From assembly GCA_024516155.1 (NCBI GenBank), contig JAJJXM010000108.1:31316-95315 (forward strand): a DNA stretch of 64,000 nucleotides. Direction: 5' to 3'. This document shows, piece by piece, positions 13,070 through 63,119 of this stretch. Every line of letters starts with the position of its first letter. Positions within the stretch are counted from its first letter, which is position 1. A program made the position numbers and the translations under genes. The notes beneath the pieces were generated by a model, which did not search any database, had not been told where the DNA came from, and was given only the letters and a program-made list of their open reading frames with translations. The stretch comes from Pyronema omphalodes. Lineage: Eukaryota > Ascomycota > Pezizomycetes > Pezizales > Pyronemataceae.

Positions 13070-13268
13070 ACACCACACGGCAACGGCGACCCCCCCCCCC
13101 TGCATTCTCAACAACGAGCACCGAAACCCCCGGTTTTCTCATCGGATTCGGATTCGCAGCACTCTGTTACGTTATTCTCTGAATTTTCAGGGAATTCTAC
13201 GTTGTTTTTGTTGACTTTTGTCGCAAAATCAGAGTTGTCACGAGTTTTGGCTTACCCCACCTCACGAA

Positions 13269-14723
13269 ATGTCGCCAAAACAACGACAGAACAACGCCCG
13301 ACGATCGAAACAGTCCGAAAACGCGTACAATGTTCTAGCCGACCTTCCTCATGATGGATCTACTCCTACTCTGGATGGAAGAGATGGAAAAGTTGATGAA
13401 GTTGATGGAAACTTCGCTGGAAAGCCCTTCCAGAGCGTGGTCTTGGCACGATCACCAGTTCCTTCGGCTTCAACATCGCAGCAACAGGCGACAACTGAAC
13501 ACAGCCGGTTTAGTGACTACCGTCGCATGATGGTATCTGCAATTAATAAGGCAGTCGCAGTTGACGACAACTATGTCACCCTAGATCAACTGTTTATAGA
13601 CAACTACGCCGGACTCACTGGAGCCAGCTTCCTGGGGATACAACAGATCCACCAGGACACACAGCGACGCTTCAATACCCTCGATGACACCATACGCAAC
13701 AACAGCGATGAGATGCGCCTCAGATTCGACGTCATGATGACGAAATTCAACATTCTGATCGGCGAAAACACGAAGCTGCGCGCAGCCTACGACTCTACAC
13801 AGGCAGAAACAGCAGCTCTCAAGGCTGCTGTGGACGCCCTGACGAGGAAAATCGACGAACAGCAACAAGTCATTTCGGCACCCCCCTCACCGAACCTCAC
13901 GGCCTCTTCCTCAGCGATGGAAGAGATGACTATGCAACTGTCCGTCGTCCAACATGACATTCAGGATGTCCTGGACGCTGTTCGCAACCCTCCTGGCAAG
14001 AGAAAGCGAAGGGGAAGCGACCAGAACACCGAACCCACCTCACCGACAAACAGAACACCGGTGAACCACAAACCGAGAGCGGCATCACCGGTGCGAAGCC
14101 TGATGCACTCAAAACATGCGACTACCGCCGCCCAGGACAAGCTTGATGCCCTCAAGCCTATGTCCCCCCTACCTCTCCTCGCGATCACGTCAACCGATGC
14201 GACACCGGAACCTCACCTTGACAGTCCATCTGCTCAGGACACACCTCTACCCGACGCCCCAAGCACTGCCCCTGCTGAGACGAACGGATGGAAGACTGTG
14301 GAGGCGAAGGCTGCACAGAGGAAGAAGCAGAAAGCGAAGGAGACGACACCTACGGCAGCGCCACCCAGCAAGACCCCTACAACAAAGAATGGTGGACGGG
14401 GAAAGAACACCCACCAACCCAGAACGACAACACCCTCTGCAAAGAAGACTTGGGCAGAAGTCGTCAAGAGCGGAGGCATCAACGTCCAGATTGTGCTTGG
14501 GAATGGCAATCTTGGACTGACAACACCACCGACAAGAAGGGGAGAGAGGCGAGGGGGAGCAGCGAGGAGGCTGAGGAAGAAGGAAGGAGAAGGGGAGAGA
14601 GGGGAGGAGAAGAGGGGCAGGGCGGGCCCGGGTGTCTCAAAGGGCAAAGAGTCAGGAGACACCGGCGGAGGAGGGGAGAGAGGAGAGGAGAGTGGAGGCA
14701 CGGGTGGCCCGGCGGCTGTTTAA
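13269..14723 (+). CDS. N1 ORF: 484-aa coiled-coil protein of the N element
   Basis: I do not recognise the family. The first ATG gives MSPKQRQNNARRSKQSENAY; a frame without ATG extends 17 codons upstream. Residues about 75-165 form a variable central part. About 165-205 is heptad-like (ENTKLRAAYDSTQAETAALK), probably a coiled coil. GKRKRRGSD near 243 looks like a nuclear localisation signal. A Pro/Thr-rich region and TWAEVVKSGG follow, and the C-terminus is very rich in Arg, Glu and Gly. No CCHC knuckle, RT or nuclease motif is visible. By position and size it could be an ORF1-like RNA chaperone, as in half-LINE elements such as HAL1 of mammals. Function is inference. Confidence 0.85.
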   Translation: MSPKQRQNNARRSKQSENAYNVLADLPHDGSTPTLDGRDGKVDEVDGNFAGKPFQSVVLARSPVPSASTSQQQATTEHSRFSDYRRMMVSAINKAVAVDDNYVTLDQLFIDNYAGLTGASFLGIQQIHQDTQRRFNTLDDTIRNNSDEMRLRFDVMMTKFNILIGENTKLRAAYDSTQAETAALKAAVDALTRKIDEQQQVISAPPSPNLTASSSAMEEMTMQLSVVQHDIQDVLDAVRNPPGKRKRRGSDQNTEPTSPTNRTPVNHKPRAASPVRSLMHSKHATTAAQDKLDALKPMSPLPLLAITSTDATPEPHLDSPSAQDTPLPDAPSTAPAETNGWKTVEAKAAQRKKQKAKETTPTAAPPSKTPTTKNGGRGKNTHQPRTTTPSAKKTWAEVVKSGGINVQIVLGNGNLGLTTPPTRRGERRGGAARRLRKKEGEGERGEEKRGRAGPGVSKGKESGDTGGGGERGEESGGTGGPAAV

Positions 14724-15063
14724 CTTTGCTTTGGTTTTGTTTTTGCTTTGTGGAGGAAATACAGGAGGAAAAATGGTTAAAAATGGGAGGGGAAGGGAGG
14801 AGGAAAGAGAGGAGCCCGGCGAGGCGGCCTCTGTGCAAGCAGGGCACTTGGAACATCAGACGCGCTTGGACAAGAAACCCCGTAGTATACAGTGGGGACA
14901 GACCCCACAACCACAACGATCAAGAGGAGGAGACTGGTAGAGGTGGAGACTGGGTTTTTGCTTTTACATTTCTTTCTTCATCTCTTTTGTATTTATCTGT
15001 CCCTTGTCATAACCTTCGGGTTGCAAACAAGTAATGAGAGAACAAACAAACAAACAAACAAAC
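14724..15063 (+). other. N1 3' region: family 1 tail with hairpins
   Basis: After the stop come the shared GGAGGAAATACAGG module, a hairpin GTGGGG/CCCCAC around ACAGA (near 14892), and the terminal hairpin (near 15003-15031) with outer stem CTTGT/ACAAG, inner stem AACC/GGTT and loop TTCG. AAAC repeats finish it. From the module onwards it matches the LINE A 3' end almost base for base. Confidence 0.85.
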
Positions 15064-15167: not shown

Positions 15168-15609
15168 TCCATTCCACACCACACAGCAACCGCTGACCCC
15201 CCCCTGCATTTGCGACGACAACAACAATTTCCCCGATTTTCGAATCGGCAATCGATTTCTTACCTCGGAATTACCCCGAATCTCGATTTTCGGAACCCAG
15301 CTACCGTTTACCGTTGAGATTCAGCGGAAAAAACGCGATTCTTGGACCTCCGGGCCGGATTCCGGGCACTTTCATCAACGCCGCTCCACCACCCGCCCCC
15401 CAATCATCAAACCGACCTTATTTTCGGTTTCGGCATACCGAAATCCCCCCCCCCCCCAAATCCCCCCCCCACCAGCAGCACTGGTTGTGGTGATCCCCCA
15501 AATTTTCCCCCCTCCGGACCCCTTTCCTCGCGAGAAATTTTCGTGCTCGCTTAGCAAGAGCCTCCTCACGTGACTCTTCGCCATCGCTTACCTCACCACC
15601 GGTTAAGCG
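15168..15609 (+). promoter_or_regulatory. LINE A 5' untranslated region
   Basis: Begins TCCATTCC, not found in the other copies, then ACACCACACAGCAACCGC, a C run and TGCATTTGCG. The CACAC-GCAAC-GC-GACCCCCC-TGCATT pattern is shared with N elements. An inverted repeat TTCGGT/ACCGAA lies near 15424-15441. The last bases AGCGATGGACGC hold the ORF1 ATG. It presumably contains the internal promoter; no TATA box is evident. Confidence 0.6.
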
Positions 15610-17316
15610 ATGGACGCTAACGCACCCATCCCCGCCACGCCCTCGCGTATGCAGGTACCCGAGAATATTTTTAGCCCCGACGAGCTTTCCCAGATCAACG
15701 CCCCGCACGCGGGCTCCTCCGCCATCGCGACCTCTAAGAAATCAACGACCGCCTCAAAAGTCACCAAACCCCCCGCCAAAAAATCCGCCTCTAGACGTGA
15801 CCTCGACCTCCTCCGCAAAAATGTCACCCGACCGAAAACAAACACCCACGTGAACCTCGATGGGACCCCCATCGAAACAATGCCGACCGCCATGGACACT
15901 GACAGCTGCCCCGACACCGACTCCGAATCCGACTCTGACCTGAACCTCAACGACAGCCAGCACGCAATAACTGCCTCCGACGTCAACCCCAACCCCCAGC
16001 CTCAGCCCGACAACGACCTCCTCTCAGCCATCGCCACCATGATTTCGAAAAACACCAACGACGCGCTCCGACCTATTGTCCATTCCATCGCCACCATCAA
16101 CAAAAGACTCGACAAAATCACAAAACCCAGCCCGCCCCCTCCGACACAGCCCCAACGTCAACCCCACCCCGAACAATCGACCACCGCCAACTCACCCCCC
16201 GACGACCTCCAATACTGGAAAGAACGATGCCGACTCCTGGAAAACGCCCTTCGCCACCACAACATCGCCATACCGACCTCCACCACTACTCGCCGCCACA
16301 ACCCCCCCACGACCACTCACCAGCCGTGGACCTCCGGCACAACCGTCGCTGACCTCTCCTTCCCCGCCCACGCCCCCAAAAGCAACCCCCCCGTAAAACC
16401 GCACCCCCGACGCCAACGCACCCGCCCCCAGGAAATCAACCTGCCCTGCCTCAACCCTGCGGAAATCGACGTCAATACCAAAGCCCAACTGGGAAGGGCG
16501 ATCAACGCTGCACTCACCCAGGCACAGGCGCCGCCCCACATGGCTGTCGCCACGATCAGACAAGCCTCATCAGGAAACCTCATCGTGACCATGACAGACG
16601 GCACCACTGAATCCGAGCTGACCAAGAACCTAGGGACCATTCACACAGCGACGCAACAAGTCAACACCTCCATCGCCGCACCCCGCCTGAACGAGCGGTG
16701 GTATAAGCTCGCAGTCCACGGAATCCCCACGAGCCAATACCCCGACTCCCCCGACGGAATGCGCCTCCTCCAAGAGGAGATCGAACGCAGCAACGGACAT
16801 GTCACCCTGGCGCAACCCCCCCGATATATGACGACCGCGGAGAAACGTGTGGGCAAGGAAGCATCCAGTGTGGTTATTGCGGTACGTACCGCCGAAGAGC
16901 TCGCACTCCTGAAGCGCAAACGAGTCATGGTACTCTTCGAGCCCCGAAGAGTCACCGAGTACCACTCTGCCCGACAGACCGACCAGTGTCGGCGCTGCTT
17001 GCTCTTTGGCCACCACTACACCAAGTGCACTGGACCGCAAGGCCCCACCTGCGGAATCTGCGGCCAGAACCACCCCACAGACGACCACGCCTGCAGCGAC
17101 TGCCCCCAAAGCAAAGGTAAGAGCTGTGAACACACTAGATACCATTGCAAAAACTGCGCGGACGCCAACCTCCCCGACCTCGACCACCCAGGCTTCAGCA
17201 AGCAATGCCCCGTACGCATCCGCATATTCAAAGAAGCCTGGACAGCGTCACAAAACCCCGCCGCCGCCCCACCCAACCCCGCCGACAGAGACACTGAGAT
17301 GAACGCCCATGTCTAG
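15610..17316 (+). CDS. LINE A ORF1: gag-like RNA-binding protein with CCHC knuckles (568 aa)
   Basis: The acidic and Pro/Thr-rich N-terminus starts MDANAPIPATPSRMQ. A short helical stretch (DLQYWKERCRLLENALRHHN, about 200-220) may be a coiled coil. The conserved block RLNERWYKLAVHGIP lies near 360. Knuckles run from residue 460: CRRCLLFGHHYTKC, CGICGQNHPTDDHAC and the CEHTRYHCKNC group. Tad-type ORF1 proteins bind the element RNA and form the particle with ORF2. The stop TAG lies inside ATGTCTAG, where the ATG starts ORF2, an 8-base overlap also seen in LINEs B, C, D and F. Confidence 0.93.
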   Translation: MDANAPIPATPSRMQVPENIFSPDELSQINAPHAGSSAIATSKKSTTASKVTKPPAKKSASRRDLDLLRKNVTRPKTNTHVNLDGTPIETMPTAMDTDSCPDTDSESDSDLNLNDSQHAITASDVNPNPQPQPDNDLLSAIATMISKNTNDALRPIVHSIATINKRLDKITKPSPPPPTQPQRQPHPEQSTTANSPPDDLQYWKERCRLLENALRHHNIAIPTSTTTRRHNPPTTTHQPWTSGTTVADLSFPAHAPKSNPPVKPHPRRQRTRPQEINLPCLNPAEIDVNTKAQLGRAINAALTQAQAPPHMAVATIRQASSGNLIVTMTDGTTESELTKNLGTIHTATQQVNTSIAAPRLNERWYKLAVHGIPTSQYPDSPDGMRLLQEEIERSNGHVTLAQPPRYMTTAEKRVGKEASSVVIAVRTAEELALLKRKRVMVLFEPRRVTEYHSARQTDQCRRCLLFGHHYTKCTGPQGPTCGICGQNHPTDDHACSDCPQSKGKSCEHTRYHCKNCADANLPDLDHPGFSKQCPVRIRIFKEAWTASQNPAAAPPNPADRDTEMNAHV

Positions 17317-20300
17317 CTACAACAGACTGGCAGCAACCATACGGATCGTCTCCCACAACGTGAACCGACAACGAACAGCACTCGATGCGCTGCTGAATAG
17401 CGCACACAACACAGCCGACATAATCCTAATACAAGAAATCCACATAACCGACATAACATACGCCACCACACACCCATCTTTCACACTGGTCTTGCCACCG
17501 CGTGGAGATAGAACCACCAACAGAACAGCCGCCTACGTGACCAGGACAAACCCATACCTCAGGGTTTCTCAGCGCACCGATATATGCGCGGATCCTGACC
17601 TCCAGGTCCTTGAGGTAGGCACCGACTTAATTCCTTCTTTCTTTCTTTTTAATGTATACAACGAAAAACACCCCGAAAGCAATATTTATACCATCCCGAG
17701 AGCCCTCACCCCCCTCCCCCTCCCCCGCAGGTGCATCATCACAGGTGACCTCAACGCTCACCATGCCCTGTGGAACTCCTCCACACGTTCCCCCACCCGC
17801 GCCACCGAAATAGTTGACCTCATCGAACAACGAGACTGGACCCTCGTGTCCGTCCCTGACATTCCCACCCACTACTACAACCAAGGCCGCAGTTCTTCCG
17901 TCCTCGACCTGACCCTAGCATCGCCCCACATGGCAGAGGAAACAATCAACTGGGCAATTGACGACGACAACGCTACGGGATCTGACCATGAGGTCATACG
18001 TTTCGAAGTGCACACAACCCACCCAGACGCTGAAACAACCCCCCCAACAAACCGACTGAACTGGAAAAAGACGGACTGGGAGCTCTTCGCCGAAACCCTC
18101 CGTGCCTCGTGCTTCGCCCTCACACCATCATGGACACAATACCGCAACCACCCTACCACAGACAACCTCGATGCGTGGGCGGAGTCAATACGTGATGCCA
18201 TCCTTAATGCCGCGACTACGTCCACCCCCGTACTACAAGTGACCCCACAATCGAAGAGATGGTGGACCGCAGAAGTCACCGAGACGAGGAAAAAGATGAC
18301 CAAAGCAAGACGTAAGTGGAAACGCAAACGTGACGATAGATCCCACCTAAACTACAAACAACACCGAAACGAATACCACAGGACCATTCGAACGGCGAAA
18401 GATGCAAAGTGGAAGGAATATCTTTCCCAAGCCGAAGGACCCGATGTGTGGCAGGCGTTTAGGTACACCAACCCTCGGCGTGCTCAGCTAACACCAAACC
18501 TCCGCGCAATGATAAACGGCCAAGAAACAATCTGCAGCTCCTTCGACGCAAAGGTAGAGGCCTTCCAAAAGTTGTTTCCCCCGCCGCCGCCACCACCGCC
18601 TCCGTCCATCCTCCCCCCGCGCCGCGAGTTGCAGTGGACAACCTTTACACCGACAGAGGTAGAAACAGCGATATTCTCCTCCTCGCCGAAGAAGGCGCCC
18701 GGACCCGATGGGCTCACATTCGCCTGCCTACGCCAAGCATACCTCGCCATCCCCGAACACATGAACAACCTCTACGCCACATTAGGGACGGTAGGCTACC
18801 ATCCGCGATGCTGGCGCCAGGCCACCACAGTCATTATCGCCAAACCCAACAAGCCGGATTACAGCAATCCAAAGGCATACCGCCCAATTGCGCTCCTAAA
18901 CTGCCTTGGGAAGACCCTCGAAAAACTAATGGCCACTCGCCTAGGCACGATGGCAGACTCTCACGACTTACTACATAGAGACCAAATAGGTGGACGCCCG
19001 CAGAGATCAGCAATTGACGCGGCGATGGCGCTGGTGCACGACGTCGAGATTGGGAAATCTCACGGAATGCTAACCTCTGCCCTCTTCCTCGATGTTCGTG
19101 GAGCGTTTGACAACGTCTCTGCTGACCGCCTGCAACAAACATTACGACAGCTTGGGTGCCCGCGACCAGTAGTATCGTGGTGCCAGTCTTTCCTCGCAGA
19201 TCGCACGATCGCTCTAGCGTTCGATGGGCGAACTGACACGCAACGCCCAGTGCAAACAGGCATCCCACAAGGTTCCCCTGCATCCCCCATACTTTTCTTA
19301 TTATACCTCCGCCCACTATTCGACGAACTAGCACAGGTACACCCGTACGCCTGGACACCTAGCTACATTGACGACGTAGCGATCGTCGTCCAGGGACGCA
19401 CCAGAAAAGCGAACGCCCGCGCACTTGAGAACATCACGACAACAGCCTTTCGGTGGGCCGACGCAAACGCCGTTGCATTTGACGATGCCAAGTCAGAGCT
19501 CCTGCATTTCCACTGGGCACGCACCGATAGCATCACTGAGGAGGAAAAAGTTAAGTTACCAAACGGTACAGTTATCACACCGGGAACACAAGGAGGAGAG
19601 AAGGATGTGGTGCGGTGGATAGGCCTGTATTTAGATAGGAAACTTAACTTTAGAAAACATGTAGCTAGACGAGTAACCGCCGCGCAAAGAACTCTGAACG
19701 CACTGTGTAGGTTAGCACGGTACGAAACAGGTCTGTCCCCCGCTGCCACAAGACTAATCTACCAGGCGTGTGTCCAGTCGAGAGCAGACTACGGCGCAGA
19801 GATATGGTGGAAGCAACAAAAAGACCTTGCCCGCACCCTCCAGAATCAACAGAACACCGCCCTCCGCAGGATTCTCAACGCCTTCACCTCTACTCCGATC
19901 CTGGCCCTCCACAATGAATCCGCACTCCCTCCCGTCACAATACGTCTTGACAACCGCCAGCGGAAATACGCCCTGCGCACCCTCACCTTACCCGCTTCGC
20001 ACCCTATCATCACACGCTGCCCCGTCTCGTTTCCCGCCCCGAGTATCAATGATGCCTCCATCAACCCGGACACCGAGTACGACCACCCGTGGCACGTCCC
20101 AGGACAAGCCCCGTCCCGCCTCCTGCATGTCATCAGCACCCTCTCCCCGTGGGTCCAACCAAACGCCGAAATCGAGGACACCTCCCAAAACATCCCCGAC
20201 GACGACCTCGCCCCTACATTAACGATCGACATCTCCTCCTCCCCGAAGGCTGACGCTGCCGACGACCACCTCCTCCTCCTCCACGCCCTTCGCCAACGAT

Positions 20301-21229
20301 CGGATACTATCCTACTGTACACGGACGGCTCTCAACTTGACGGCATAACAGGCGCAGGATACACCATCCCACACGGGCTGCCACGATCTGTCGACTCCAT
20401 AGTGCCCATGGGCGACAGAACAGAAGTCTTCGACGCGGAAGTTATGGCCATCCACGAAGGACTCCGGACATGCCTGACACACATTCGACGCAACGACCTA
20501 TACGACAAACACATCCACGTTTTTACCGACAACCAGGCCGCGATACATCGAGCCTCTCACCTCCGTCGAGGCCCCGGCCAGGAGCTCGCCTGGGCCATCC
20601 ACAACACCGCTCACGACCTTCACGCTTACGGTACCTCAATTACCATCCACTGGGTCCCAGGACACACTAATGTCCCCGGAAACGAAGCCGCCGACGAACT
20701 GGCCAGACAGGCGACAACAGTACCGCCACGCCGACGAATACCGATATCCCTCACTTGGCTGCGCCGCCGCGCTCGAGAGAGGTACACCGAAGACTGGACC
20801 ACCTGGTTCACCTCTTCCCCCCGACCGCGCACGTACACCGCCACACACCGCCGCACAATGGACACTGCGTACACCGAAAACCCCCGCTGGATATCAACTG
20901 CAATCCTGGGTCTTCGCACCGGCCACGGGTACTTCCTCAACTGCTTGGCCCACCCTCCATCCGACGCATACCCCTCCCGCAGCTGCAGCTGCCCAATCCA
21001 TCCACCGCAGACGCCTCGACACCTCCTCCTGAGCTGCCCCGACTTCCAGGCCGCTCGCTCCACACTCAGGAAGGACCTCAAACTCAGACAACACTCCCGG
21101 ATCAACCTAAACACCATTCTGGACACCCCCTCCGGCACCAAGGCTCTTTCCACTTTTATCTCTGCAACCAAGGTTGCTACCTCGACCTGGGCACACTCCC
21201 GGCTAGAGAAGCCTCGCAGAAGGGGATAG
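17309..21229 (+). CDS. LINE A ORF2: endonuclease, reverse transcriptase, RNase H (1306 aa)
   Basis: The APE-like endonuclease spans residues 1 to about 230, with ILIQEI, TGDLNAHH (145-152) and SDHEVIRF (225-232). The reverse transcriptase includes SPKKAPGPDG, RPIALLNCLGKTLEKL, GIPQGSPASPILF and YIDD at 686-689. RNase H starts TDGSQLDG at 1005 and has DAEVMAIHE, TDNQAAIHR and HWVPGHTNVPGNEAADELA. A C-terminal motif CSCPIHPPQTPRHLLLSC starts at 1226. The protein should nick DNA, prime on the nick and copy the RNA. Start chosen for the 8-base overlap with ORF1. No lesion was seen. Confidence 0.95.
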   Translation: MSSYNRLAATIRIVSHNVNRQRTALDALLNSAHNTADIILIQEIHITDITYATTHPSFTLVLPPRGDRTTNRTAAYVTRTNPYLRVSQRTDICADPDLQVLEVGTDLIPSFFLFNVYNEKHPESNIYTIPRALTPLPLPRRCIITGDLNAHHALWNSSTRSPTRATEIVDLIEQRDWTLVSVPDIPTHYYNQGRSSSVLDLTLASPHMAEETINWAIDDDNATGSDHEVIRFEVHTTHPDAETTPPTNRLNWKKTDWELFAETLRASCFALTPSWTQYRNHPTTDNLDAWAESIRDAILNAATTSTPVLQVTPQSKRWWTAEVTETRKKMTKARRKWKRKRDDRSHLNYKQHRNEYHRTIRTAKDAKWKEYLSQAEGPDVWQAFRYTNPRRAQLTPNLRAMINGQETICSSFDAKVEAFQKLFPPPPPPPPPSILPPRRELQWTTFTPTEVETAIFSSSPKKAPGPDGLTFACLRQAYLAIPEHMNNLYATLGTVGYHPRCWRQATTVIIAKPNKPDYSNPKAYRPIALLNCLGKTLEKLMATRLGTMADSHDLLHRDQIGGRPQRSAIDAAMALVHDVEIGKSHGMLTSALFLDVRGAFDNVSADRLQQTLRQLGCPRPVVSWCQSFLADRTIALAFDGRTDTQRPVQTGIPQGSPASPILFLLYLRPLFDELAQVHPYAWTPSYIDDVAIVVQGRTRKANARALENITTTAFRWADANAVAFDDAKSELLHFHWARTDSITEEEKVKLPNGTVITPGTQGGEKDVVRWIGLYLDRKLNFRKHVARRVTAAQRTLNALCRLARYETGLSPAATRLIYQACVQSRADYGAEIWWKQQKDLARTLQNQQNTALRRILNAFTSTPILALHNESALPPVTIRLDNRQRKYALRTLTLPASHPIITRCPVSFPAPSINDASINPDTEYDHPWHVPGQAPSRLLHVISTLSPWVQPNAEIEDTSQNIPDDDLAPTLTIDISSSPKADAADDHLLLLHALRQRSDTILLYTDGSQLDGITGAGYTIPHGLPRSVDSIVPMGDRTEVFDAEVMAIHEGLRTCLTHIRRNDLYDKHIHVFTDNQAAIHRASHLRRGPGQELAWAIHNTAHDLHAYGTSITIHWVPGHTNVPGNEAADELARQATTVPPRRRIPISLTWLRRRARERYTEDWTTWFTSSPRPRTYTATHRRTMDTAYTENPRWISTAILGLRTGHGYFLNCLAHPPSDAYPSRSCSCPIHPPQTPRHLLLSCPDFQAARSTLRKDLKLRQHSRINLNTILDTPSGTKALSTFISATKVATSTWAHSRLEKPRRRG

Positions 21230-21965
21230 ACCCCTACCGCTGACTACACTGACCGCAGTACCTTAGGAACTTTCGCGCGCGCTGATTTTGCAGTGCTTTC
21301 TTACTTAGGATTTTGTTTTGTAAAAAAAACAAAAAAAAAAACAAAGGGGACAAGCAGAAGGGGAAGGTAGAGAAGGGATAGGCGGAGAGAAAGGGAAAGG
21401 GCACGCGGTGACGGGATCGGGCTGGGGTCGTTGCTTGGGTCTGCTTGGGGTTCGGGTGTTTTGAGTCTTGTTTTCTTTTTGTTTTCTTTTGTTTTCTTTT
21501 CTTTGTCTTTCAATTGTTTGTCTTACGGGTTGGAGTTGTTTTATGGTGCGACGGGTGAGAAGGGAACGGAGAGTGGAATGGTGCGAAAGGAGAGAGAGGG
21601 GCACGGGGAAGGAACAGAGGAGGGCGGCGGGAGTTATCTTTTTCTTTTCTTTTGTACGCGGAGGAAACAAAGGCGGTAAAATGGCTAAACATGGGAAGGG
21701 GAAGGGAGGAGGAAAGGGAGGAGCCCGGCGAGGCGGCCTCTGTGCAAGCAGGGCACTTGGAACATCAGACGCGCTTGGACAAGAAACCCCCGAAGTATAC
21801 AGTGGGGACAGACCCCACAACCACAACGATCAAGAGGAGGAGACTGGTAGAGGTGGAGACTGGGTTTTTGCTTTTACATTTCTTTCTTCTTCGCTTTTGT
21901 ATTTATCTGTCCCTTGTCATAACCTTCGGGTTGCAAACAAGTAATGAGAGAACAAACAAACAAAC
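21230..21965 (+). other. LINE A 3' untranslated region, terminal hairpin and AAAC tail
   Basis: An A-rich stretch follows near 21328, then G/A-rich sequence. From about 21655 the shared module GGAGGAAACAAAGGCGG begins and the sequence matches the N1 tail. The hairpin GTGGGG/CCCCAC lies near 21802-21820. The terminal hairpin has CTTGT 21913-21917, CAT, AACC 21921-21924, loop TTCG, GGTT 21929-21932, GCAA, ACAAG 21937-21941. AAAC repeats end the element. This is probably the reverse transcriptase recognition end. Confidence 0.8.
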
Positions 21966-22182
21966 TCCCGCTGTCCACGGAAAGACACCACACGGCAACG
22001 GCGACCCCCCCCCCTGCATTCTCAACAACGAGCACCGAAACCCCCGGTTTTCTCATCGGATTCGGATTCGCAGCACTCTGTTACGTTATTCTCTGAATTT
22101 TCAGGGAATTCTACGTTGTTTTTGTTGACTTTTGTCGCAAAATCAGAGTTTTCACGAGTTTTGGCTTACCCCACCTCACGAA

Positions 22183-23631
22183 ATGTCGCCAAAACAACGA
22201 CAGAACAACGCCCAACGATCGAAACGGTCCGAAAACGCGTACAATGTTCTAGCCGACCTTCCTCATGATGGATCTAAGCCTACTTTTGATGGAAGAGATG
22301 GAATAGTTGATGAAGTTGATGGAAACAGTGCTGGAGAACCCCTCCAGAACGTGGTCTTGGCAGGATCACCAGTTCCTTCGGCTTCAACAGACCAGCAACA
22401 AGACACAACTACCCGATCGCTGTATATCTGGCGCCATGAAATGATCAAGTTCATCCTTGAAGAATATGGAGCACGCGATGAAGCGTGCCTGGACAGATCA
22501 TTGGCAGCGAACCACTCACGGATCAGTGCCCTCACGTTGTTAGGTGTGAACCAGGACAACAGAGAGACTCACCGCCGCTTCGACACAGTCGAAGAGAAGA
22601 TGTGCGACATAAGCGACCACATCAACGACAGGCTTGACGCCGTTCTGGCGAAACTCAACGACCTGCACGGCGAAAATGCGAAGCTGCGCGCAGCATTCGA
22701 CTCTACACAGGGAGAAACAGCAGCTCTCAAGGCTGCTGTGGCCGCCCTGACGAAGAAAATCGACGAACAGCAACAAGTCATTTCGGCTCCCCCCTCACCG
22801 AACCTCACGGCCTCTTCCTCAGCGATGGAAGAGATGACTATGCAGCTCTCCGTCGTCCAACATGACATTCAGGATGTCCTGGACGCTGTTCGCAACCCTC
22901 CTGGCAAGAGAAAGCGAAGGGGAAGCGACCAGAACACCGAACCCACCTCACCGACAAACAGACGACCGGTGAACCACAAACCGAGAACGGCATCACCGGT
23001 GCGAAGCCTGATGCACTCAAAACATGCGACTACCGCCGCCCAGGACAAGCTTGATGCCCTCAAGCCTATGTCCCCCCTACCTCTCCTCGCGATCACGTCA
23101 TCCGATGCGACACCGGAACCTCACCCTGACAGTTCATCTGCTCAGGACACACCTCTACCCGACGCCCCAAGCACTGCCCCTGCTGAGACGAATGGATGGA
23201 AGACTGTGGAGGCGAAGGCTACACAGAGGAAGAAGCAGAAAGCAAAGGAGACGACACCTACGGCAGCGCCACCCAGCAAGACCCCTACAACAAAGAATGG
23301 TGGCCGGGGAAAGAATACCCACCAACCCAGAACGACAACCTCCTCTGCAAAGAAGACTTGGGCAGAAGTCGTCAAGAGCGGAGGCATCAACGTCCAGATT
23401 GTGCTTGGGAATGGCAATCTTGGACTGACAACACCACCGACAAGAAGGGGAGAGAGGCGAGGCGGGGCAGCGAGAAGGCTGAGGAAGAAGGAGGGAGAAG
23501 GGGAGAGAGGGGAGGAGAAGAGGGGCAGGACTGGCCCGGGTGTCTCAAAGGGCAAAGAGTCAGAAGACACCGGCGGAGGAGGGGAGAGAGGAGAGGAGAG
23601 TGGGGGCACGGGTGGCCCGGCGGCTGTTTAA
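22183..23631 (+). CDS. N2 ORF: 482-aa N protein with an exchanged central part
   Basis: Same family as the N1 protein. The first 85 or so residues and everything from about residue 165 onward match N1 closely. Between them N2 reads TTRSLYIWRHEMIKFILEEY and beyond, with little similarity to N1, N3, N4 or N5. The GENAKLRAAFDSTQGETAAL helix, GKRKRRGSD, TWAEVVKSGG and the Arg/Glu/Gly-rich end are retained. The ORF is open. A recombined or fast-evolving central part is the simplest reading. Function unknown. Confidence 0.85.
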   Translation: MSPKQRQNNAQRSKRSENAYNVLADLPHDGSKPTFDGRDGIVDEVDGNSAGEPLQNVVLAGSPVPSASTDQQQDTTTRSLYIWRHEMIKFILEEYGARDEACLDRSLAANHSRISALTLLGVNQDNRETHRRFDTVEEKMCDISDHINDRLDAVLAKLNDLHGENAKLRAAFDSTQGETAALKAAVAALTKKIDEQQQVISAPPSPNLTASSSAMEEMTMQLSVVQHDIQDVLDAVRNPPGKRKRRGSDQNTEPTSPTNRRPVNHKPRTASPVRSLMHSKHATTAAQDKLDALKPMSPLPLLAITSSDATPEPHPDSSSAQDTPLPDAPSTAPAETNGWKTVEAKATQRKKQKAKETTPTAAPPSKTPTTKNGGRGKNTHQPRTTTSSAKKTWAEVVKSGGINVQIVLGNGNLGLTTPPTRRGERRGGAARRLRKKEGEGERGEEKRGRTGPGVSKGKESEDTGGGGERGEESGGTGGPAAV

Positions 23632-23960
23632 CTTTGCTTTGGTTTTGTTTTTGCTTTGTGGAGGAAATAAAGGCGGAAAAATGGTTAAAAAAGGGAGGGG
23701 AAGGGTGGAGGAAATGGGGGAACGACCCGGCGAGGTGGCCTCCGAGCGTACAGGGCTCCTGGAACAGACGACGCTTGACGAACAAAAGCACAGCGAGACT
23801 TGGGGGTCTACAACCCCACACCCTAACGACAAGCTCTGGGGCACGCCCAGTGAGAGCCTGGCCTGACACCCGGGTTTCTTAATTTTGTATTTACTGTAGA
23901 TTCCGCCATAACCTTACGGTTGGATGCGTGTATGAGTTAATAAATAAATAAATAAATAAA
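23632..23960 (+). other. N2 3' region: family 2 tail with hairpins
   Basis: The shared module is followed by the LINE D type end. A hairpin TGGGG/CCCCA lies near 23801-23820. The terminal hairpin is at 23904-23928: outer CGC/GCG, CAT, inner AACC/GGTT, loop TTAC, GGAT. AAAT repeats run to 23960. Confidence 0.85.
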
Positions 23961-35505: not shown

Positions 35506-35532
<27 letters not shown>

Positions 35533-45485: not shown

Positions 45486-45606
45486 CTATAAACTTAAGGC
45501 TCAAGCTACTAAGTTTACTTATCGACACGAATACGGAAGACCCTCTTCTAGGGCAAGAAACACCAACACTCCTCCAAAAAACTACAAACGAAAACTTCAA
45601 TCTACA
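45486..45606 (+). other. G2 leader
   Basis: 121 bases between LTR and gag. The first bases CTATAAACTTAAGGCTC should contain the primer site. They do not match the common initiator-Met primer site, and I cannot name the tRNA. Confidence 0.6.
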
Positions 45607-47799: not shown

Positions 47800-48122
47800 G
47801 ATCCTCTAGGGTTGCGTCACCTGAGGAGGAGGCATGTATATCTGACGCAGGGAATATTATTTGTTGTGGAACAAAAAGAAAATCCACAGACGACTTGGGG
47901 TCGATCAAGACAAAAAATCGACGAACCGACAATGGAACCTCTTCCAAGGAAACGAAAATGGAAGCCGTGGTCCCACCTTATCACGGAAAAAGGCCAATAA
48001 TCAACATGTTGTTGAATTGGTCAAAGAATAAATTAGAACGGTGCGGGTCCTACTCGATACAGGCTCCACCTCAGCACTACTGGACAAAGGTTTTGTCCAT
48101 ACATACAAAATCCCTACTGTGA
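47784..48122 (+). pseudogene. G2 start of pol (pre-protease region)
   Basis: Open in the frame one base back from gag and overlapping its end. Around the gag stop the sequence GAT TTT TAA would let a Phe tRNA on TTT slip back onto TTT, giving a gag-pol fusion; this is not a canonical heptamer. The frame reads KMEAVVPPYHGKRPIINM and NWSKNKLER. There the protease continues in another frame, consistent with one lost base near 48040. Downstream of that point this frame is noise. Confidence 0.6.
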
Positions 48123-49246: not shown

Positions 49247-49247
49247 G

Positions 49248-51494: not shown

Positions 51495-51664
51495 GGCTTA
51501 ATGTTTTTCCCACGGGGTTTTCATTAGGTCGAGTTGGTAGTAGGATGTAGGGGCTGGAGGACTACATCCATATATGATCACTTAATCACTTGGCTGCGGC
51601 GAGGTGCGATCACAGAATGATGAACTACTTGCTTCGGGACGAAGCTTGAACAGGGGGGAGGTGG
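51495..51664 (+). other. G2 3' untranslated region and polypurine tract
   Basis: No ORF. AGGGGGGAGGTGG at 51652-51664 abuts the 3' LTR and is a good plus-strand primer. Confidence 0.8.
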
Positions 51665-53021
51665 TGTCACACCCTATAATGTGTGAGTATAGAATAGGTA
51701 ACATGTATAACATTTAGAGAACATGGCAAACTCGACAGGAGAATGAATAATAAGGTTAGTATCCCGGGCCGGAACCCCCTGAGGAGCTCCAGCTAGCCAC
51801 GTCACGTGATTCGTGACTTTCCGAAAGGACCTCACGAGGATCCCGGCCCGAGGCGTCGCTACCTGTTATTCACTGTCAGTTTGGGAGGATCACAGATGGA
51901 TGGGAACGAGGAACAACTTACCTCATGGGTGTCGACTTACCCATGAGAAAACTACAGACGACGCTGATGGAGACAGAAGACGACGGCGAAAGGACACCCC
52001 CTTATACTTGAGGTTGTGTTCCACCAAGCACGGCTACCAGAGGGCTTGCAAGAGAAGGGAATTCTCAGGACAGTGCAAGGCAGACGAATAGGATCATCCG
52101 AGGTCTGAGTTGGGCGGATAGTCGGCCAAGGAACAAGGCAGAGTCTAGTCAGCCAACAGGAGTGGAGCTCAGGACAAGGGTCAAGATTGCGATAGCATGA
52201 GACGACGTCCTGCAGCAAGGAACACCACTCAGGGAAACTGTTGGATGGAACTGATATGACGCGACCTTAGGCCAATGACTACCAACTGCAAGATAAGACG
52301 GCGTTTGCGTACACACCAGGGTGTGGCTGCGCGCAAGTGCGCACAGGTGGGGCTGTTATGACATCACACAGGAATGTGACGGGGCAGTGCGCTCCGGTAA
52401 GGCATAGTCTGCCTTATGATGTCAGATTCCTTCACTCGCAATCGAGATTCTCTAGGGAGATCTATGATCAAGACGACTCATGCGATATATGACTCACATG
52501 TTATTATCGGAGGAGTCATTGCATTATGCGCTCAAGTGGAGTAACCCTCCACTAGGCGCTTAACCCCAATACCTGATTGGAAGGTGTGGTAGCACGGCGA
52601 GGAATGTCAAGGATTAATCTGAGACGAGGCACATCATGCAAGTGAGCAATTAATATAATTGCGCATGCAGCATGATGCGAGCCATCGGCAGATTTGTCAA
52701 AGGATTGACTCACGTCTTATCTCCTAAGCTTCGTTTGGAAGTTGGTTCCCTTGGGAAGTCTGGGCGAACTTGTAGACGAAAGTCTATAAAAGACCCTAAG
52801 TCTTCCCACCGTTTCCTCCAGCATCAGCAACTTGATCTCTTGTTACGACGTTACTATTCTACACCGATACCTCAGGACGAGACCCTTAAGTTTATTCGGC
52901 CTGTGATCGATTAGTTTACTTCCTAGCTTCTTGGGGAAATCTTTTAGTTGAATATCTTTCAAACAAAGTACGACTGATCGAAAAAGCCTCTGTATTGAAA
53001 GCCTCAATACCCAGGTTCACA
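51665..53021 (+). repeat. G2 3' LTR
   Basis: 1357 bp, same ends and length as the 5' LTR; one difference found (52988). Followed by CACAC (53022-53026) and the continuation of N4. Confidence 0.95.
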
Positions 53022-53947
53022 CACACAGCGACGCTTCAATACCCTCGATGACACCATACGCAACAACAGCGATGAGATGCGCCTCAGATTCGACGTCATG
53101 ATGACGAAATTCAACATTCTGTTCGGCGAAAACACGAAGCTGCGCGCAGCCTACGACCCTACACAGGCAGAAACAGCAGCTCTCAAGGCTGCTGTGGACG
53201 CCCTGACGAGGAAAATCGACGAACAGCAACAAGTCATTTCGGCGCCCCCCTCACCGAACCTCACGGCCTCTTCCTCAGCGATGGAAGAGATGACTATGCC
53301 ACTGTCCGTCGTCCAACATGACATTCAGGATGTCCTGGACGCTGTTCGCAACCCTCCTGGCAAGAGAAAGCGAAGGGGAAGCGACCAGAACACCGAACCC
53401 ACCTCACCGACAAACAGAAGACCGGTGAACCACAAACCGAGAGCGGCATCACCGGTGCGAAGCCTGATGCACTCAAAACATGCGACCACCGCCGCCCAGG
53501 ACAAGCTTGATGCCCTCAAGCCTATGTCCCCCCTACCTCTCCTCGCGATCACGTCAACCGATGCGACACCGGAACCTCACCCTGACAGTCCATCTGCTCA
53601 GGACACACCTCTACCCGACGCCCCAAGCACTGCCCCTGCTGAGACGAACGGATGGAAGACTGTGGAGGCGAAGGCTGCACAGAGGAAGAAGCAGAAAGCG
53701 AAGGAGACGACACCTACGGCAGCGCCACCCAGCAAGACCCCTACAACAAAGAATGGTGGACGGGGAAAGAACACCCACCAACCCAGAACGACAACACCCT
53801 CTGCAAAGAAGACTTGGGCAGAAGTCGTCAAGAGCGGAGGCATCAACGTCCAGATTGTGCTTGGGAATGGCAATCTTGGACTGACAACACCACCGACAAG
53901 AAGGGGAGAGAGGCGAGGGGGAGCAGCGAGGAGGCTGAGGAAGAAGG
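53022..53947 (+). pseudogene. N4 ORF, middle piece
   Basis: Continues N4 after G2: RRFNTLDDTIRNNSDEMR, ENTKLRAAYDPTQAETAAL, GKRKRRGSD, TWAEVVKSGG, up to AARRLRKK, where N5 enters after GCTGAGGAAGAAGG (53934-53947). Confidence 0.87.
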
Positions 53948-55945
53948 TTTGTTTGTTTGTTTGTTTGTTCTCTCATTACTTGTTTGCAACCCGAAGGTTA
54001 TGACAAGGGACAGATAAATACAAAAGAGAAGAAGAAAGAAATGTAAAAGCAAAAACCCAGTCTCCACCTCTACCAGTCTCCTCCTCTTGATCGTTGTGGT
54101 TGTGGGGTCTGTCCCCACTGTATACTACGGGGGTTTCTTGTCCAAGCGCGTCTGATGTTCCAAGTGCCCTGCTTGCACAGAGGCCGCCTCGCCGGGCTCC
54201 TCCCTTTCCTCCTCCCTTCCCCTCCCATTCTTAACCATTTTTCCTCCTGTATTTCCTCCACGAAGCAAAAACAAAACCAAAGCAAAGTTAAACAGCCGCC
54301 GGGCCACCCGTGCCCCCACTCTCCTCTCCTCTCTCCCCTCCTCCGCCGGTGTCTCCTGACTCTTTGCCCTTTGAGACACCCGGGCCCGCCCTGCCCCTCT
54401 TCTCCTCCCCTCTCTCCCCTTCTCCTTCCTTCTTCCTCAGCCTCCTCGCTGCTCCCCCTCGCCTCTCTCCCCTTCTTGTCGGTGGTGTTGTCAGTCCAAG
54501 ATTGCCATTCCCAAGCACAATCTGGACGTTGATGCCTCCGCTCTTGACGACTTCTGCCCAAGTCTTCTTTGCAGAGGGTGTTGTCGTTCTGGGTTGGTGG
54601 GTGTTCTTTCCCCGTCCACCATTCTTTGTTGTAGGGGTGTTGCTGGGTGGCGCTGCCGTAGGTGTCGTCTCCTTCGCTTTCTGCTTCTTCCTCTGTGCAG
54701 CCTTCGCCTCCACAGTCTTCCATCCGTTCGTCTCAGCAGGGGCAGTGCTTGGGGCGTCGGGTAGAGGTGTGTCCTGAGCAGATGGACTGTCAGGGTGAGG
54801 TTCCGGTGTCGCATCGGTTGACGTGATCGCGAGGAGAGGTAGGGGGGACATAGGCTTGAGGGCATCAAGCTTGTCCTGGGCGGCGGTAGTCGCATGTTTT
54901 GAGTGCATCAGGCTTCGCACAGGTGATGCCGCTCTCGGTTTGTGGTTCACCGGTCTTCTGTTTGTCGGTGAGGTGGGTTCGGTGTTCTGGTCGCTTCCCC
55001 TTCGCTTTCTCTTGCCAGGAGGGTTGCGAACAGCGTCCAGGACATCCTGAATGTCATGTTGGACGACGGACAGTTGCATAGTCATCTCTTCCATCGCTGA
55101 GGAAGAGGCCGTGAGGTTCGGTGAGGGGGGCGCCGAAATGACTTGTTGCTGTTCGTCGATTTTCCTCGTCAGGGCGTCCACAGCAGCCTTGAGAGCTGCT
55201 GTTTCTGCCTGTGTAGAGTCGTAGGCTGCGCGCAGCTTCGTGTTTTCGCCCATCAGAATGTTGAATTTCGTCATCATGACGTCGAATCTGAGGCGCATCT
55301 CATCGCTGTTGTTGCGTATGGTGTCATCGAGGGTATTGAAGCGACGCTGTGTGTCCTGGTGGATCTGTTGTATCCCCAGGAAGCTGGCTCCAGCGAGTCC
55401 GGCGTAGTTGTCTATAAACAGTTGATCTAGGGTGACATAGTTGTCGTCAACTGCGACTGCCTTATTAATTGCAGATACCATCATGCGACGGTAGTCACTA
55501 AACCGGCTGTGTTCAGTTGTCGCCTGTTGCTGCGATGTTGAAGCCGAAGGAACTGGTGATCGTGCCAAGACCACGCTCTGGAAGGGCTTTCCAGCGAAGT
55601 TTCCATCAACTTCATCAACTTTTCCATCTCTTCCATCCAGAGTAGGAGTAGATCCATCATGAGGAAGGTCGGCTAGAACATTGTACGCGTTTTCGGACCG
55701 TTTCGATCGTCGGGCGTTGTTCTGTCGTTGTTTTGGCGACATTTCGTGAGGTGGGGTAAGCCAAAACTCGTGAAAACTCTGATTTTGCGACAAAAGTCAA
55801 CAAAAACAACGTAGAATTCCCTGAAAATTCAGAGAATAGCGTAACAGAGTGCTGCGAATCCGAATCCGATGAGAAAACCGGGGGTTTCGGTGCTCGTTGT
55901 TGAGAATGCACGGGGGGGGGTCGCCGTTGCCGTGTGGTGTGATTC
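53948..55945 (-). mobile_element. N5: full-length N element with family 1 tail, inverted inside N4
   Basis: 1998 bp flanked by GCTGAGGAAGAAGG (53934-53947 and 55946-55959). Its 5' end at 55945 reads GAATCACACCACACGGC, the same extended start as in N3. Being antisense to its host N4, it creates a long inverted repeat. Confidence 0.93.
54288..55742 (-). CDS. N5 ORF: 484-aa N protein
   Basis: Open, MSPKQRQNNARRSKRSENAY to GGPAAV, nearly identical to N3 including the Leu-Ala-Gly-Ala stretch (YAGLAGASF) where N1 has YAGLTGASF. All features listed for N1 are present. Its 3' untranslated region (53948-54287) carries the family 1 hairpins and AAAC tail. Confidence 0.86.
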   Translation of the reverse strand: MSPKQRQNNARRSKRSENAYNVLADLPHDGSTPTLDGRDGKVDEVDGNFAGKPFQSVVLARSPVPSASTSQQQATTEHSRFSDYRRMMVSAINKAVAVDDNYVTLDQLFIDNYAGLAGASFLGIQQIHQDTQRRFNTLDDTIRNNSDEMRLRFDVMMTKFNILMGENTKLRAAYDSTQAETAALKAAVDALTRKIDEQQQVISAPPSPNLTASSSAMEEMTMQLSVVQHDIQDVLDAVRNPPGKRKRRGSDQNTEPTSPTNRRPVNHKPRAASPVRSLMHSKHATTAAQDKLDALKPMSPLPLLAITSTDATPEPHPDSPSAQDTPLPDAPSTAPAETNGWKTVEAKAAQRKKQKAKETTPTAAPPSNTPTTKNGGRGKNTHQPRTTTPSAKKTWAEVVKSGGINVQIVLGNGNLGLTTPPTRRGERRGGAARRLRKKEGEGERGEEKRGRAGPGVSKGKESGDTGGGGERGEESGGTGGPAAV

Positions 55946-55959
55946 GCTGAGGAAGAAGG

Positions 55960-56433
55960 AAGGAGAAGGGGAGAGAGGGGAGGAGAAGAGGGGCAGGGCG
56001 GGCCCGGGTGTCTCAAAGGGCAAAGAGTCAGGAGACACCGGCGGAGGAGGGGAGAGAGGAGAGGAGAGTGGGGGCACGGGTGGCCCGGCGGCTGTTTAAC
56101 TTTGCTTTGGTTTTGTTTTTACTTTGTGGAGGAAATACAGGAGGAAAAATGGTTAAAAATGGGAGGGGAAGGGAGGAGGAAAGGGAGGAGCCCGGCGAGG
56201 CGGCCTCTGTGCAAGCAGGGCACTTGGAACATCAGACGCGCTTGGACAAGAAACCCCCGTAGTATACAGTGGGGACAGACCCCACAACCACAACGATCAA
56301 GAGGAGGAGACTGGTAGAGGTGGAGACTGGGTTTTTGCTTTTACATTTCTTTCTTCTTCTCTTTTGTATTTATCTGTCCCTTGTCATAACCTTTGGGTTG
56401 CAAACAAGTAATGAGAGAACAAACAAACAAACA
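55960..56433 (+). pseudogene. N4 ORF, C-terminal piece, and N4 3' tail
   Basis: Charged Gly/Glu/Arg end of the N protein to the TAA at 56097-56099, then the module, GTGGGG/CCCCAC hairpin, terminal hairpin (loop TTTG here instead of TTCG: AACC-TTTG-GGTT) and AAAC tail to 56433. Confidence 0.85.
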
Positions 56434-61131: not shown

Positions 61132-63119
61132 TTTTATTTATTTATTTATTTATTAACTCATACACGCATCCAACCGTAAGGTTATGGCGGAATCTACAGT
61201 AAATACAAAATTAAGAAACCCGGGTGTTAGGCCGAGCTCTCACTGTGTATGCCCCAGAGCTTGTCGTTAGGGTGTGGGGTTGTAGACCCCCAAGTCTCGT
61301 TGTGCTTTTGTTCGTCAAGCGTCGTCTGTTCCAGGAGCCCTGTACGCTCGGAAGCCACCTCGCCGGGTCGTTCCCCCATTTCCTCCACCCTTCCCCTCCC
61401 ATTTTTAACCATTTTTCCGCCTTTATTTCCCCCACAAAGCAAAAACAAAACCAAAGCAAAGTTAAACAGCCGCCGGGCCACCTACGCCCCCACTCTCCTC
61501 CCCTCTCTCAACTCCTCCGCCGGTGTCTCCTGACTCTTTGCCCTTTGAAACACCCGGGCCCGCCCTGCCCCTCTTCTCCTCCCCTCTCTCCCCTTCTCCC
61601 TCCTTCTTTCTCAGCCTTCTCGCTGCCCCGCCTCGCCTCTCTCCCCTTCTTGTCGGTGGTGTTGTAAGTCCAAGATTGCCATTCCCAAGCACAATCTGGA
61701 CGTTGATGCCTCCGCTCTTGACGACTTCTGCCCAAGTCTTCTTTGCGGAGGGGGTTGTCTGTCTGGGTTGGTGGGTATTCTTTCCCCTGCTACCAGTCTT
61801 CGTTGTAGGGGTCTTGCTGGGTGTCGCTGCCGTAGGTCTCGTCTCCTGCGCTTTCATCTTCTTCTTCTGCGTAGCCTTCGCCTCCACAGTCTTCCATCCG
61901 TTCGTCTCAGCAGGGGCAGTGCTTGGGGCGTCGGGTAGAGGTGTCTCCTGAGCAGATGAACTGTCAGGGTGAGGTTCCGGTGTCGCATCGGTTGACGTGA
62001 TCGCGAGGAGAGGTAGGGGGGACATAGGCTTGAGGGCATCAAGCTTGTCCTGGGCGGCGGTAGTCGCATGTTTCGAGTGCATCAGGCTTCGCACCGGTGA
62101 TGCAGCTCTCGGTTTGTGGTTGACCGGTGCTCTGGTCGTTGGTGAGGTGGGTTCGGTGTTCTGGTCGCTTCCCCTTCGCTTTCTCTTGCCAGGAGGGTTG
62201 CGGACAGCGTCCAGGACATCCTGAATGTCATGTTGGACGACGGACAGTTGCATAGTCATCTCTTCCATCGCTGAGGAAGAGGCCGTGAGGTTCGGTGAGG
62301 GGGGCGCCGAAATGACTTGTTGCTGTTCGTCGATTTTCTTCGTCAGGGCGTCCACAGCAGCCTTGAGAGCTGCTGTTTCTGCCTGTGTAGAGTCGTATGC
62401 TGTGCGCAGCGTCGCGTTTTCGAAGAGCAGATCGTTGAATTTCGTCATCATGACGTCGAATCTGCCGTGTATCGCATCGTTGTTGTTGCGCATGGATTCC
62501 TCGAGTGTATTGAAGCGTTGCTGTGTGTCCCGGTGGATCTGTTGTATCCCCAGGAAGCTGGCTCCATTGAGTTCGGCGTAGTTGTCATGGAACAGCTGAT
62601 CCAGGGTGGCATAGGTGTCATCAGCTGCAACTGCCTCATTAATCGCGGATACACACAAGCGGCGGTAGGTACTGAACCGGCTGTGTTCAGTTGTCGCTTG
62701 TAGCTGGTGTGTTGAAGCCGAAGGAACTGGTGATCCTGCCAAGACCACGCTCTGGAAGGGTTTTCCAGCGAAGTTTCCATCAACTTCATCAACTATTCCA
62801 TCTCCTCCATGAAAAGTAGGGTTGGGTCCATCATGAGGAGGGTCGGCTAGAACATTGTACGCGTTTTCGGACCGTTTCGATCGTCGGGCGTTGTTCTGTC
62901 GTTGTTTTGGCGACATTTCGTGAGGTGGGGTAAGCCAAAACTCGTGAAAACTCTGATTTTGCGACAAAAGTCAACAAAAACAAGGTAGAATTCCCTGAAA
63001 ATTCAGAGAATAACGTAACAGAGTGCTGCGAATCCGAATCCGATGAGAAAACCGGGGGTTTCGGTGCTCGTTGTTGAGAATGCAGGGAGGGGGTCGCCGT
63101 TGCCGTGAACCAGAAGTCA
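61132..63119 (-). mobile_element. N8: full-length N element with family 2 tail
   Basis: 1988 bp flanked by GGGGGGTATTAGG (61119-61131 and 63120-63132). 3' end at 61132 with AAAT repeats, the CGC/GCG plus AACC/GGTT hairpin and the LINE D type 3' region (61132-61461). The 5' end carries extra bases TGACTTCTGGTT before CACGGCAACGG. Confidence 0.93.
61462..62916 (-). CDS. N8 ORF: 484-aa N protein
   Basis: MSPKQRQNNARRSKRSENAY to GGPAAV, open. The central part is of the N1 kind but more diverged (YRRLCVSAINEAVAADDTY where N1 has YRRMMVSAINKAVAVDDNY), between flanks that are almost unchanged. Helix ENATLRTAYDSTQAETAAL, GKRKRRGSD and TWAEVVKSGG are kept. Function unknown. Confidence 0.85.
   Translation of the reverse strand: MSPKQRQNNARRSKRSENAYNVLADPPHDGPNPTFHGGDGIVDEVDGNFAGKPFQSVVLAGSPVPSASTHQLQATTEHSRFSTYRRLCVSAINEAVAADDTYATLDQLFHDNYAELNGASFLGIQQIHRDTQQRFNTLEESMRNNNDAIHGRFDVMMTKFNDLLFENATLRTAYDSTQAETAALKAAVDALTKKIDEQQQVISAPPSPNLTASSSAMEEMTMQLSVVQHDIQDVLDAVRNPPGKRKRRGSDQNTEPTSPTTRAPVNHKPRAASPVRSLMHSKHATTAAQDKLDALKPMSPLPLLAITSTDATPEPHPDSSSAQETPLPDAPSTAPAETNGWKTVEAKATQKKKMKAQETRPTAATPSKTPTTKTGSRGKNTHQPRQTTPSAKKTWAEVVKSGGINVQIVLGNGNLGLTTPPTRRGERRGGAARRLRKKEGEGERGEEKRGRAGPGVSKGKESGDTGGGVERGEESGGVGGPAAV

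What the first reader, a model, noticed from the sequence alone, without database searches (positions are those of the whole stretch)
13070..63119. N elements: a half-LINE with an open 484-aa ORF that uses the 3' ends of different autonomous LINEs
N1, N3, N4, N5 and N6 end with the 3' region and AAAC tail of LINE A/B. N2 and N8 have the same body but end with the 3' region and AAAT tail of LINE D/C. N7 has a third, poly(A) end. None encodes an RT or nuclease, yet N1, N3, N5 and N8 keep exactly 484 codons, N4 does so once its two insertions are removed, and N2 has 482. SINEs with swapped LINE tails and ORF1-only HAL1 elements are known separately. A protein-coding parasite that changes its tail between partner LINE families is not something I can match to a described element.
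Basis: partly seen in the sequence, partly recalled or inferred. Interest (0 to 1): 0.88.

Follow-up and report, generated by a model that had tools for sequence, protein, structure and literature searches.

The report
Coding LINE parasite that swaps tails
In the fungus Pyronema omphalodes, a family of several hundred mobile DNA copies carries one open gene but no recognisable copying enzyme, and related copies end in the tail sequences of three different LINE families, so it likely borrows the copying enzymes of several partners and has likely changed partner more than once.

Summary
The window is Pyronema omphalodes. N elements are about 2 kb and encode one 482-484 aa protein with no RT or nuclease domain and no BLASTP similarity to the ORF1 of LINE A. 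Of 50 testable copies, 34 have target-site duplications of 10 bp or more, against 0.8% of mismatched flank pairs. A 29-base N motif occurs 451 times genome-wide, control 0. Beyond the two tails reported (A, AAAC; D, AAAT) there is a third, E (AAAC, about 76% to A), which also ends a third LINE family (only the last part of its ORF2 was read). Tail type is clustered on a tree of the ORF middle but needs at least 5 changes, and E-tailed copies show two different breakpoints. The ORF is under long-term selection: dN/dS 0.39 between the deepest subfamilies compared, about 1.2 in the wrong frames; within young subfamilies the ratio is not distinguishable from 1. Gag-only LINE-like elements (HAL1, HeT-A) and SINE tail exchange are known separately; the combination is a new variant. 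Which enzyme copies N, and what the protein does, are inferred.

The parts
13070..15063 (+). N1 element, A tail; target-site duplication ACTGTAAGCTTCGA at 13056-13069 and 15062-15075 (its first two letters may be tail)
13269..14723 (+). N1 ORF, 484 aa
14735..15063 (+). A-type tail of N1 (AAAC repeats)
21985..23961 (+). N2 element, D tail, ORF 22183-23631 (482 aa); target-site duplication TCCCGCTGTCCACG at 21966-21979 and 23961-23974
26832..28817 (+). N3 element, A tail, ORF 27030-28484 (484 aa)
32037..32979 (+). 5'-truncated N copy, A tail
35505..37315 (-). N7 copy, broken ORF, D-like tail ending in poly(A); flanking direct repeat GGAGACAGCGG
   Evidence: read by eye
43540..56432 (+). N4 copy in three pieces (43540-44128, 53021-53947, 55946-56432), A tail
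53955..55945 (-). N5 element, A tail, ORF 54288-55742 (484 aa), 14-base target-site duplication
   Evidence: L002
61133..63107 (-). N8 element, D tail, ORF 61462-62916 (484 aa); CCTAATACCCCCC on both sides
   Evidence: duplication read by eye
15175..21965 (+). LINE A: ORF1 15610-17316 (568 aa), ORF2 17309-21229 (endonuclease, RT, RNase H), A tail 21650-21965
3155..9936 (-). LINE D: ORF1 7954-9936, ORF2 3960-7961 (endonuclease, RT, RNase H), D tail 3155-3477; its 5' end was not mapped

Best explanation
N elements are non-autonomous LINE-like retrotransposons that encode their own 482-484 aa protein, carry the 3' ends of three LINE families (A, D and E), and are likely copied by the reverse transcriptases of those LINEs. 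Shown: target-site duplications, the shared tails, the tail changes on the body tree, and selection on the ORF between deep lineages. Inferred: the partner RT recognises the tail (perhaps a small AACC/GGTT hairpin plus AAAC or AAAT repeats); the N protein, predicted to have one long helix (likely a coiled coil) and a disordered remainder with basic stretches, would bind N RNA and help it into the partner's particle; and new tails would arise when reverse transcription started on a LINE 3' end switches to an N template within the purine-rich stretch that the tails share. D is the likely original tail; A and E would be later captures.
For: 34 of 50 testable copies have target-site duplications of 10 bp or more; 0.8% of mismatched pairs do (10 of 60 were not testable). 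N tails match the window's LINE A tail at 95-98% (one cut-short tail, L024, 93%) and the LINE D tail at 97-98% over about 300-320 bp, and the E tail ends a third LINE family. LINE A and D ORF2 are 61% identical, and E is 66-70% to A in the C-terminal part (L013, L040), so these are different families. LINE A 3' ends with the full tail: 11 of the 40 candidates scored (497 seen); LINE D: 40 of 40 scored (862 seen), one short by 4 bases. Tail state needs at least 5 changes on the body tree (70 rows with a state). E tails begin at two different points: L073 and L074 are A-like up to ...CAAGCAGGGCAC, while L065, L071, L072 and L075 are E-like from ...ACACCCGGCGCGG or its variant. Some of the rarer combinations have duplications of their own: L073 14 bp, L066 15 bp and L075 at least 8 bp, and L065 13 bp with one mismatch (read by eye). 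dN/dS 0.39 [0.28-0.51] N1 v P0008-type without the variable block, 1.19 [0.90-1.62] and 1.18 [0.86-1.60] off frame; residues 384-433 between 0 and 0.11 in five pairs. Synonymous divergence falls to 0.33 and 0.17 at the 3' end in that pair but not in N1 v N2, as expected if 3' ends are replaced.
Against: Within young subfamilies dN/dS is 0.58-0.73 with limits that include 1, and off-frame values overlap (0.72-1.15). L009, the clearest D tail inside the A clade, has no target-site duplication, nor do 15 other testable copies (with another anchor one search did give L043 ten bases); L074, an E copy, shows only 5 bases, and L071 and L072 lack a fetched 5' end. The tree is a quick one with 34 of 67 inner branches open, and its block may itself be recombinant. 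The sample is not random: L001-L060 are best hits to three queries, L071-L075 were chosen for their E tail. For LINE E only the last part of ORF2 was read, so its RT is not seen. The 3' hairpin does not fold better than shuffles (z from -1.2 to 0.8), and the D tail's best fold lacks it; the list was made with a pattern that required it. hhalign gives E 0.00012 for N v LINE ORF1, though at 7% identity. No transcript, protein or activity data.
Confidence: 0.7

Rival explanations
1. HAL1-like origin: N is the ORF1 part of a LINE (perhaps extinct or unread here) that lost its ORF2, and the tail is that LINE's own; later tail variety is minor.
For: Short 5' similarity to LINE A (75% over 77 bp); LINE 3' ends; a predicted long helix, as recalled for some ORF1 proteins; hhalign E 0.00012 against LINE ORF1s. 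150 RT hits were scored of 1608 candidates and the ORF1s beside them were not read.
Against: No clear homology to three ORF1s of the window (15610-17316, 7954-9936, 56384-58006): BLASTP against the first finds nothing, hhalign 55% probability over 71 columns at 7% identity. No listed N relative carries a Pfam domain or exceeds 538 aa (120 best shown of 160 and of 444); but candidates over about 850 aa were outside the search. Tails of three LINE families are present.
Confidence: 0.2
2. Tail variety is made by DNA recombination or gene conversion among inserted copies in repeat-rich islands, not during reverse transcription.
For: Copies are dense and nested; L009 lacks a target-site duplication; body blocks are mosaic too.
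Against: L073, L066 and L075 have duplications flanking body and tail together, so these combinations probably moved as units; 3'-biased replacement. This does not say how the first mixed copy arose.
Confidence: 0.3
3. The ORF is not functional: it stays open because copies are young, and N is a long SINE.
For: dN/dS 0.58-0.73 with limits that include 1 inside young subfamilies; open frames are favoured by the search ranking.
Against: dN/dS 0.39 [0.28-0.51] between subfamilies at 57% protein identity, about 1.2 off frame; 444 homologous proteins (120 listed, Pyronema or JGI metagenome, 43-82% identical), with conserved C-terminal positions.
Confidence: 0.08

Closest known systems
HAL1 (half-L1) of mammals
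   Same: Non-autonomous, LINE-like, encodes one protein and no RT (PMC5753468, passages seen).
   Different: HAL1 encodes L1 ORF1p and derives from L1; the N protein is not clearly related to the ORF1s compared, and N carries tails of three LINE families.
HeT-A of Drosophila
   Same: Gag-encoding non-LTR element lacking pol, thought to use the Pol of TART or TAHRE (PMC5537684, passages seen).
   Different: HeT-A adds to chromosome ends; N shows target-site duplications and changes tails.
SINEs with LINE-derived tails
   Same: 3' tail shared with a partner LINE (PMC3747384, passages seen, where CORE-SINEs are listed with L2, L3 and RTE-type tails); exchange of tails with other LINEs is stated in PMC8010984 (passages seen).
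   Different: SINEs start in a Pol III RNA head and, as recalled, encode no protein; N is about 2 kb and encodes a protein under selection.
Tad1-like fungal LINEs (label recalled)
   Same: LINE A and D have an ORF1 with a cysteine-rich C-terminus and an ORF2 with endonuclease, RT and RNase H.
   Different: N has none of these domains. The clade of the LINEs was not tested.

Membership tests
HAL1-type half-LINE | Encodes ORF1 protein homologous to the parent LINE | tested here: inconclusive
   No clear homology to three LINE ORF1s of the window; the ORF1s of other LINE families, E included, were not read
HAL1-type half-LINE | No RT or endonuclease | tested here: met
SINE | 3' tail shared with a partner LINE | tested here: met
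SINE | Pol III-type RNA-derived head | not tested
   no tRNA or Rfam scan was run on N
SINE | No protein coding capacity (recalled) | tested here: not met
   482-484-codon ORF, dN/dS 0.39 between deep subfamilies
Non-LTR retrotransposon moved by target-primed reverse transcription | Variable-length target-site duplications and a 3' repeat tail | tested here: met
   34 of 50 testable copies have 10 bp or more; lengths vary
HeT-A-like Gag-only element | Addition to chromosome ends in head-to-tail arrays | tested here: not met
   Copies have target-site duplications inside contigs and lie in both orientations

The most novel reading that the evidence does not exclude
N is a distinct class of mobile element, a protein-armed LINE parasite: a lineage kept for a long time by selection on its own RNA-packaging protein, not descended from any partner's ORF1, that survives the rise and fall of LINE families by capturing the 3' recognition tail of whichever LINE is active.
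Probability: 0.4. Interest if true: 0.82.

Novelty: new variant of a known kind. Interest (0 to 1): 0.64.

Why it matters
Non-autonomous elements are usually either non-coding and tail-switching (SINEs) or coding and tied to one parent (HAL1, HeT-A). N combines both, with three tail-sharing LINE families in the same genome, so it offers a natural experiment on what a LINE reverse transcriptase recognises, how tails are exchanged, and why a parasite would keep a gene of its own.

Tried and rejected
Fourth tail: L048 and L056 share an unusual end, but they are 99.9% identical over 3.8 kb, flanks included, with an insertion in the D tail, so they count as one locus and no new tail. Overlapping ORF in the frame offset by two bases (14288-15034; 217-228 aa versions elsewhere): in that frame the ratios for codons 267-484 are about 0.9 or more where they can be computed, no sign of coding. 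Known domain or structure for N: only weak, below-cut-off, mostly coiled-coil hits. RNA fold of tails: z-scores unremarkable and the D tail's best fold lacks the hairpin, though by eye the lower stem differs on both sides between A, D and E (pattern-selected). Stop counts alone as evidence of selection: rejected because the search ranks intact copies first. AlphaFold2: one long helix, 118-202, confident from about 131 to 200; mean pLDDT 54.7, pTM 0.33; no fold search was made. Papers: the ten searches (one search returned nothing) listed no coding, tail-changing LINE parasite in fungi; only PMC8010984, PMC3747384, PMC5537684 and PMC5753468 were opened, by passages. Subscription papers are mostly absent from that library.

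Full report
Where it is. The window lies in contig C11 (95,315 bases) of a 60.8 Mb genome. Its N proteins match named Pyronema omphalodes proteins, one of them on a contig of exactly that length, so the organism is Pyronema omphalodes, a Pezizomycete.

Anatomy. N1 spans 13070-15063 with a 14-base target-site duplication. It has a 199-base leader whose start is similar to the 5' end of LINE A (75% over 77 aligned bases, measured on N3), one ORF of 484 codons, and, starting about a dozen bases after the stop, a 3' region 94-96% identical to the 3' end of LINE A with AAAC repeats. N2 has the same plan with 482 codons and the LINE D end with AAAT repeats. LINE A and LINE D are separate families: their ORF2 proteins are 61% identical; both have endonuclease, RT and RNase H domains.

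Copies. The three protein searches scored 88 hits each, from 956, 951 and 915 candidates. For N1, 77 of 88 have no stop inside. The 29-base motif search with up to 3 mismatches gives 237 forward and 214 reverse matches, control 0. I fetched 75 loci: 60 with 1.5 kb on each side, 10 of about 2 kb, and 5 chosen by their E tail.

Tails. Of L001-L060, 29 have the A tail (L024 cut short), 30 the D tail (L048 and L056 cut short, and the same locus in effect) and L054 none because of an insertion. Of L061-L070, 7 have A (L061 and L067 incomplete), L066 has D, L065 has a third type, and L069 is cut by an insertion. A 48-base piece of the third tail, E, occurs 103 times with up to 3 mismatches, control 0. 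E ends copies of a LINE whose ORF2 is 66-70% identical to LINE A in the last part (L013 and L040; L039 holds only short pieces of ORF2). It also ends N copies (L065, L071-L075). L071 and L072 were fetched in the hope of LINEs and proved to be N elements. No RT domain of LINE E was read.

Exchange. On a quick tree of ORF positions 430-1150 with 71 rows (L052-L056 left out as incomplete; L069 without a state), tail type needs at least 5 changes, against a shuffled mean of 26.8; starred branches force 3 for A, 1 for D and 3 for E; 34 of 67 inner branches are open. With midpoint rooting D-tailed bodies are basal and A-tailed bodies form a clade with L009 (D) inside (L065 was still labelled A there). 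In the tail alignment the first 70 bases or so are N-like in all types; L073 and L074 turn from A to E after ...CAAGCAGGGCAC, the other four E copies earlier. L031, L045 and L058 have D tails behind an A-like ORF end. So breakpoints differ, which argues for several events.

Mosaic bodies. The P0008-type (L041-L051) is 61-73% identical to N1 over the first 1150 bases of the ORF outside the variable block (38-40% there), but 87-91% in the next 150 and 93-97% in the last 152. Synonymous divergence in that pair is 0.91, 2.18, 1.12 and 0.62 along codons 1-383 and 0.33 and 0.17 beyond, while N1 v N2 shows no such fall (wide limits). The block at codons 77-143 is 46-48% identical between N1 and N2 types, whose flanks are about 90% identical.

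Protein. Selection: dN/dS 0.39 [0.28-0.51] for N1 v P0008-type without the variable block, 1.19 and 1.18 off frame; 0 to 0.11 for residues 384-433 in five pairs; 0.58-0.73 within young subfamilies with limits that include 1 and overlapping off-frame values. Structure: a helix at 118-202, confident from about 131 to 200, and another at 214-239; most of the rest is low-confidence, as in disorder. Relatives: 160 and then 444 proteins (120 best listed each time), Pyronema or JGI metagenome sources, none listed with a Pfam domain. No clear homology to three LINE ORF1s: BLASTP nothing for LINE A; hhalign 55% probability, E 0.00012, 7% identity over 71 columns.

Movement. 34 of 50 testable copies have duplications of 10 bp or more, against 0.8% of mismatched pairs; 16 testable copies do not, among them L009, L058 and L059 (a different anchor gave ten bases for L043). 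Among later loci, L062, L063, L064 and L068 have 12-18 bp and L070 none. Of the four E copies with a fetched 5' end, L073 has 14 bp (of which AAAC may be tail), L075 at least 8 bp up to the end of the fetched stretch, L065 13 bp with one mismatch by eye, and L074 only 5. L066 (D) has 15 bp by eye and an unusual 5' end.

Reading. The shared 3' ends, repeats and duplications make copying by LINE enzymes the natural inference; which enzyme copies which N is not shown. The gradient and the breakpoints inside a stretch common to the tails fit template switching, but DNA recombination is not excluded and is the better account of L009. The protein's role is inferred from its long helix, basic stretches and long-term selection.

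Place among known things. Gag-only LINE relatives (HAL1, HeT-A) and SINE tail exchange are in print. I found no report of a coding element that does both (searches, open-licence library only). Hence: new variant of a known kind.

Noticed in passing
15154-15167, 21966-21979, 23961-23974: The same target string (TCCCGCTGTCCACG) stands before LINE A, between LINE A and N2, and after N2, so N2 seems to have inserted into the target-site duplication left by LINE A, at the same site.
   Followed up: partly
N protein codons 77-143 (window 13497-13697 in N1): A hypervariable cassette, 46-48% identical in DNA between N1 and N2 types while its flanks are about 90% identical; it looks exchanged as a block.
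   Followed up: partly
44129-51964: A Ty3-like (label recalled) long-terminal-repeat element with identical 300-base terminal pieces lies between the pieces of N4; a second such ORF (23992-26943) runs up against N3. Described only.
   Followed up: no
35790-35813: An internal poly(A) tract in N7 just after the body, followed by a second, D-like stretch that also ends in poly(A).
   Followed up: partly
L048 and L056: Two loci on different contigs are 99.9% identical over 3.8 kb including flanks: a segmental or an assembly duplication.
   Followed up: yes
14288-15034 and equivalents: An ORF of 217-248 aa, in the frame offset by two bases, overlaps the end of the N ORF; no sign of selection on it.
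   Followed up: yes
last 45 bases of tails A, D, E and of N7: All share AACC-loop-GGTT before the terminal repeats, which could pair; the lower stem differs on both sides between tail types. The D tail's best computed fold does not form it.
   Followed up: partly
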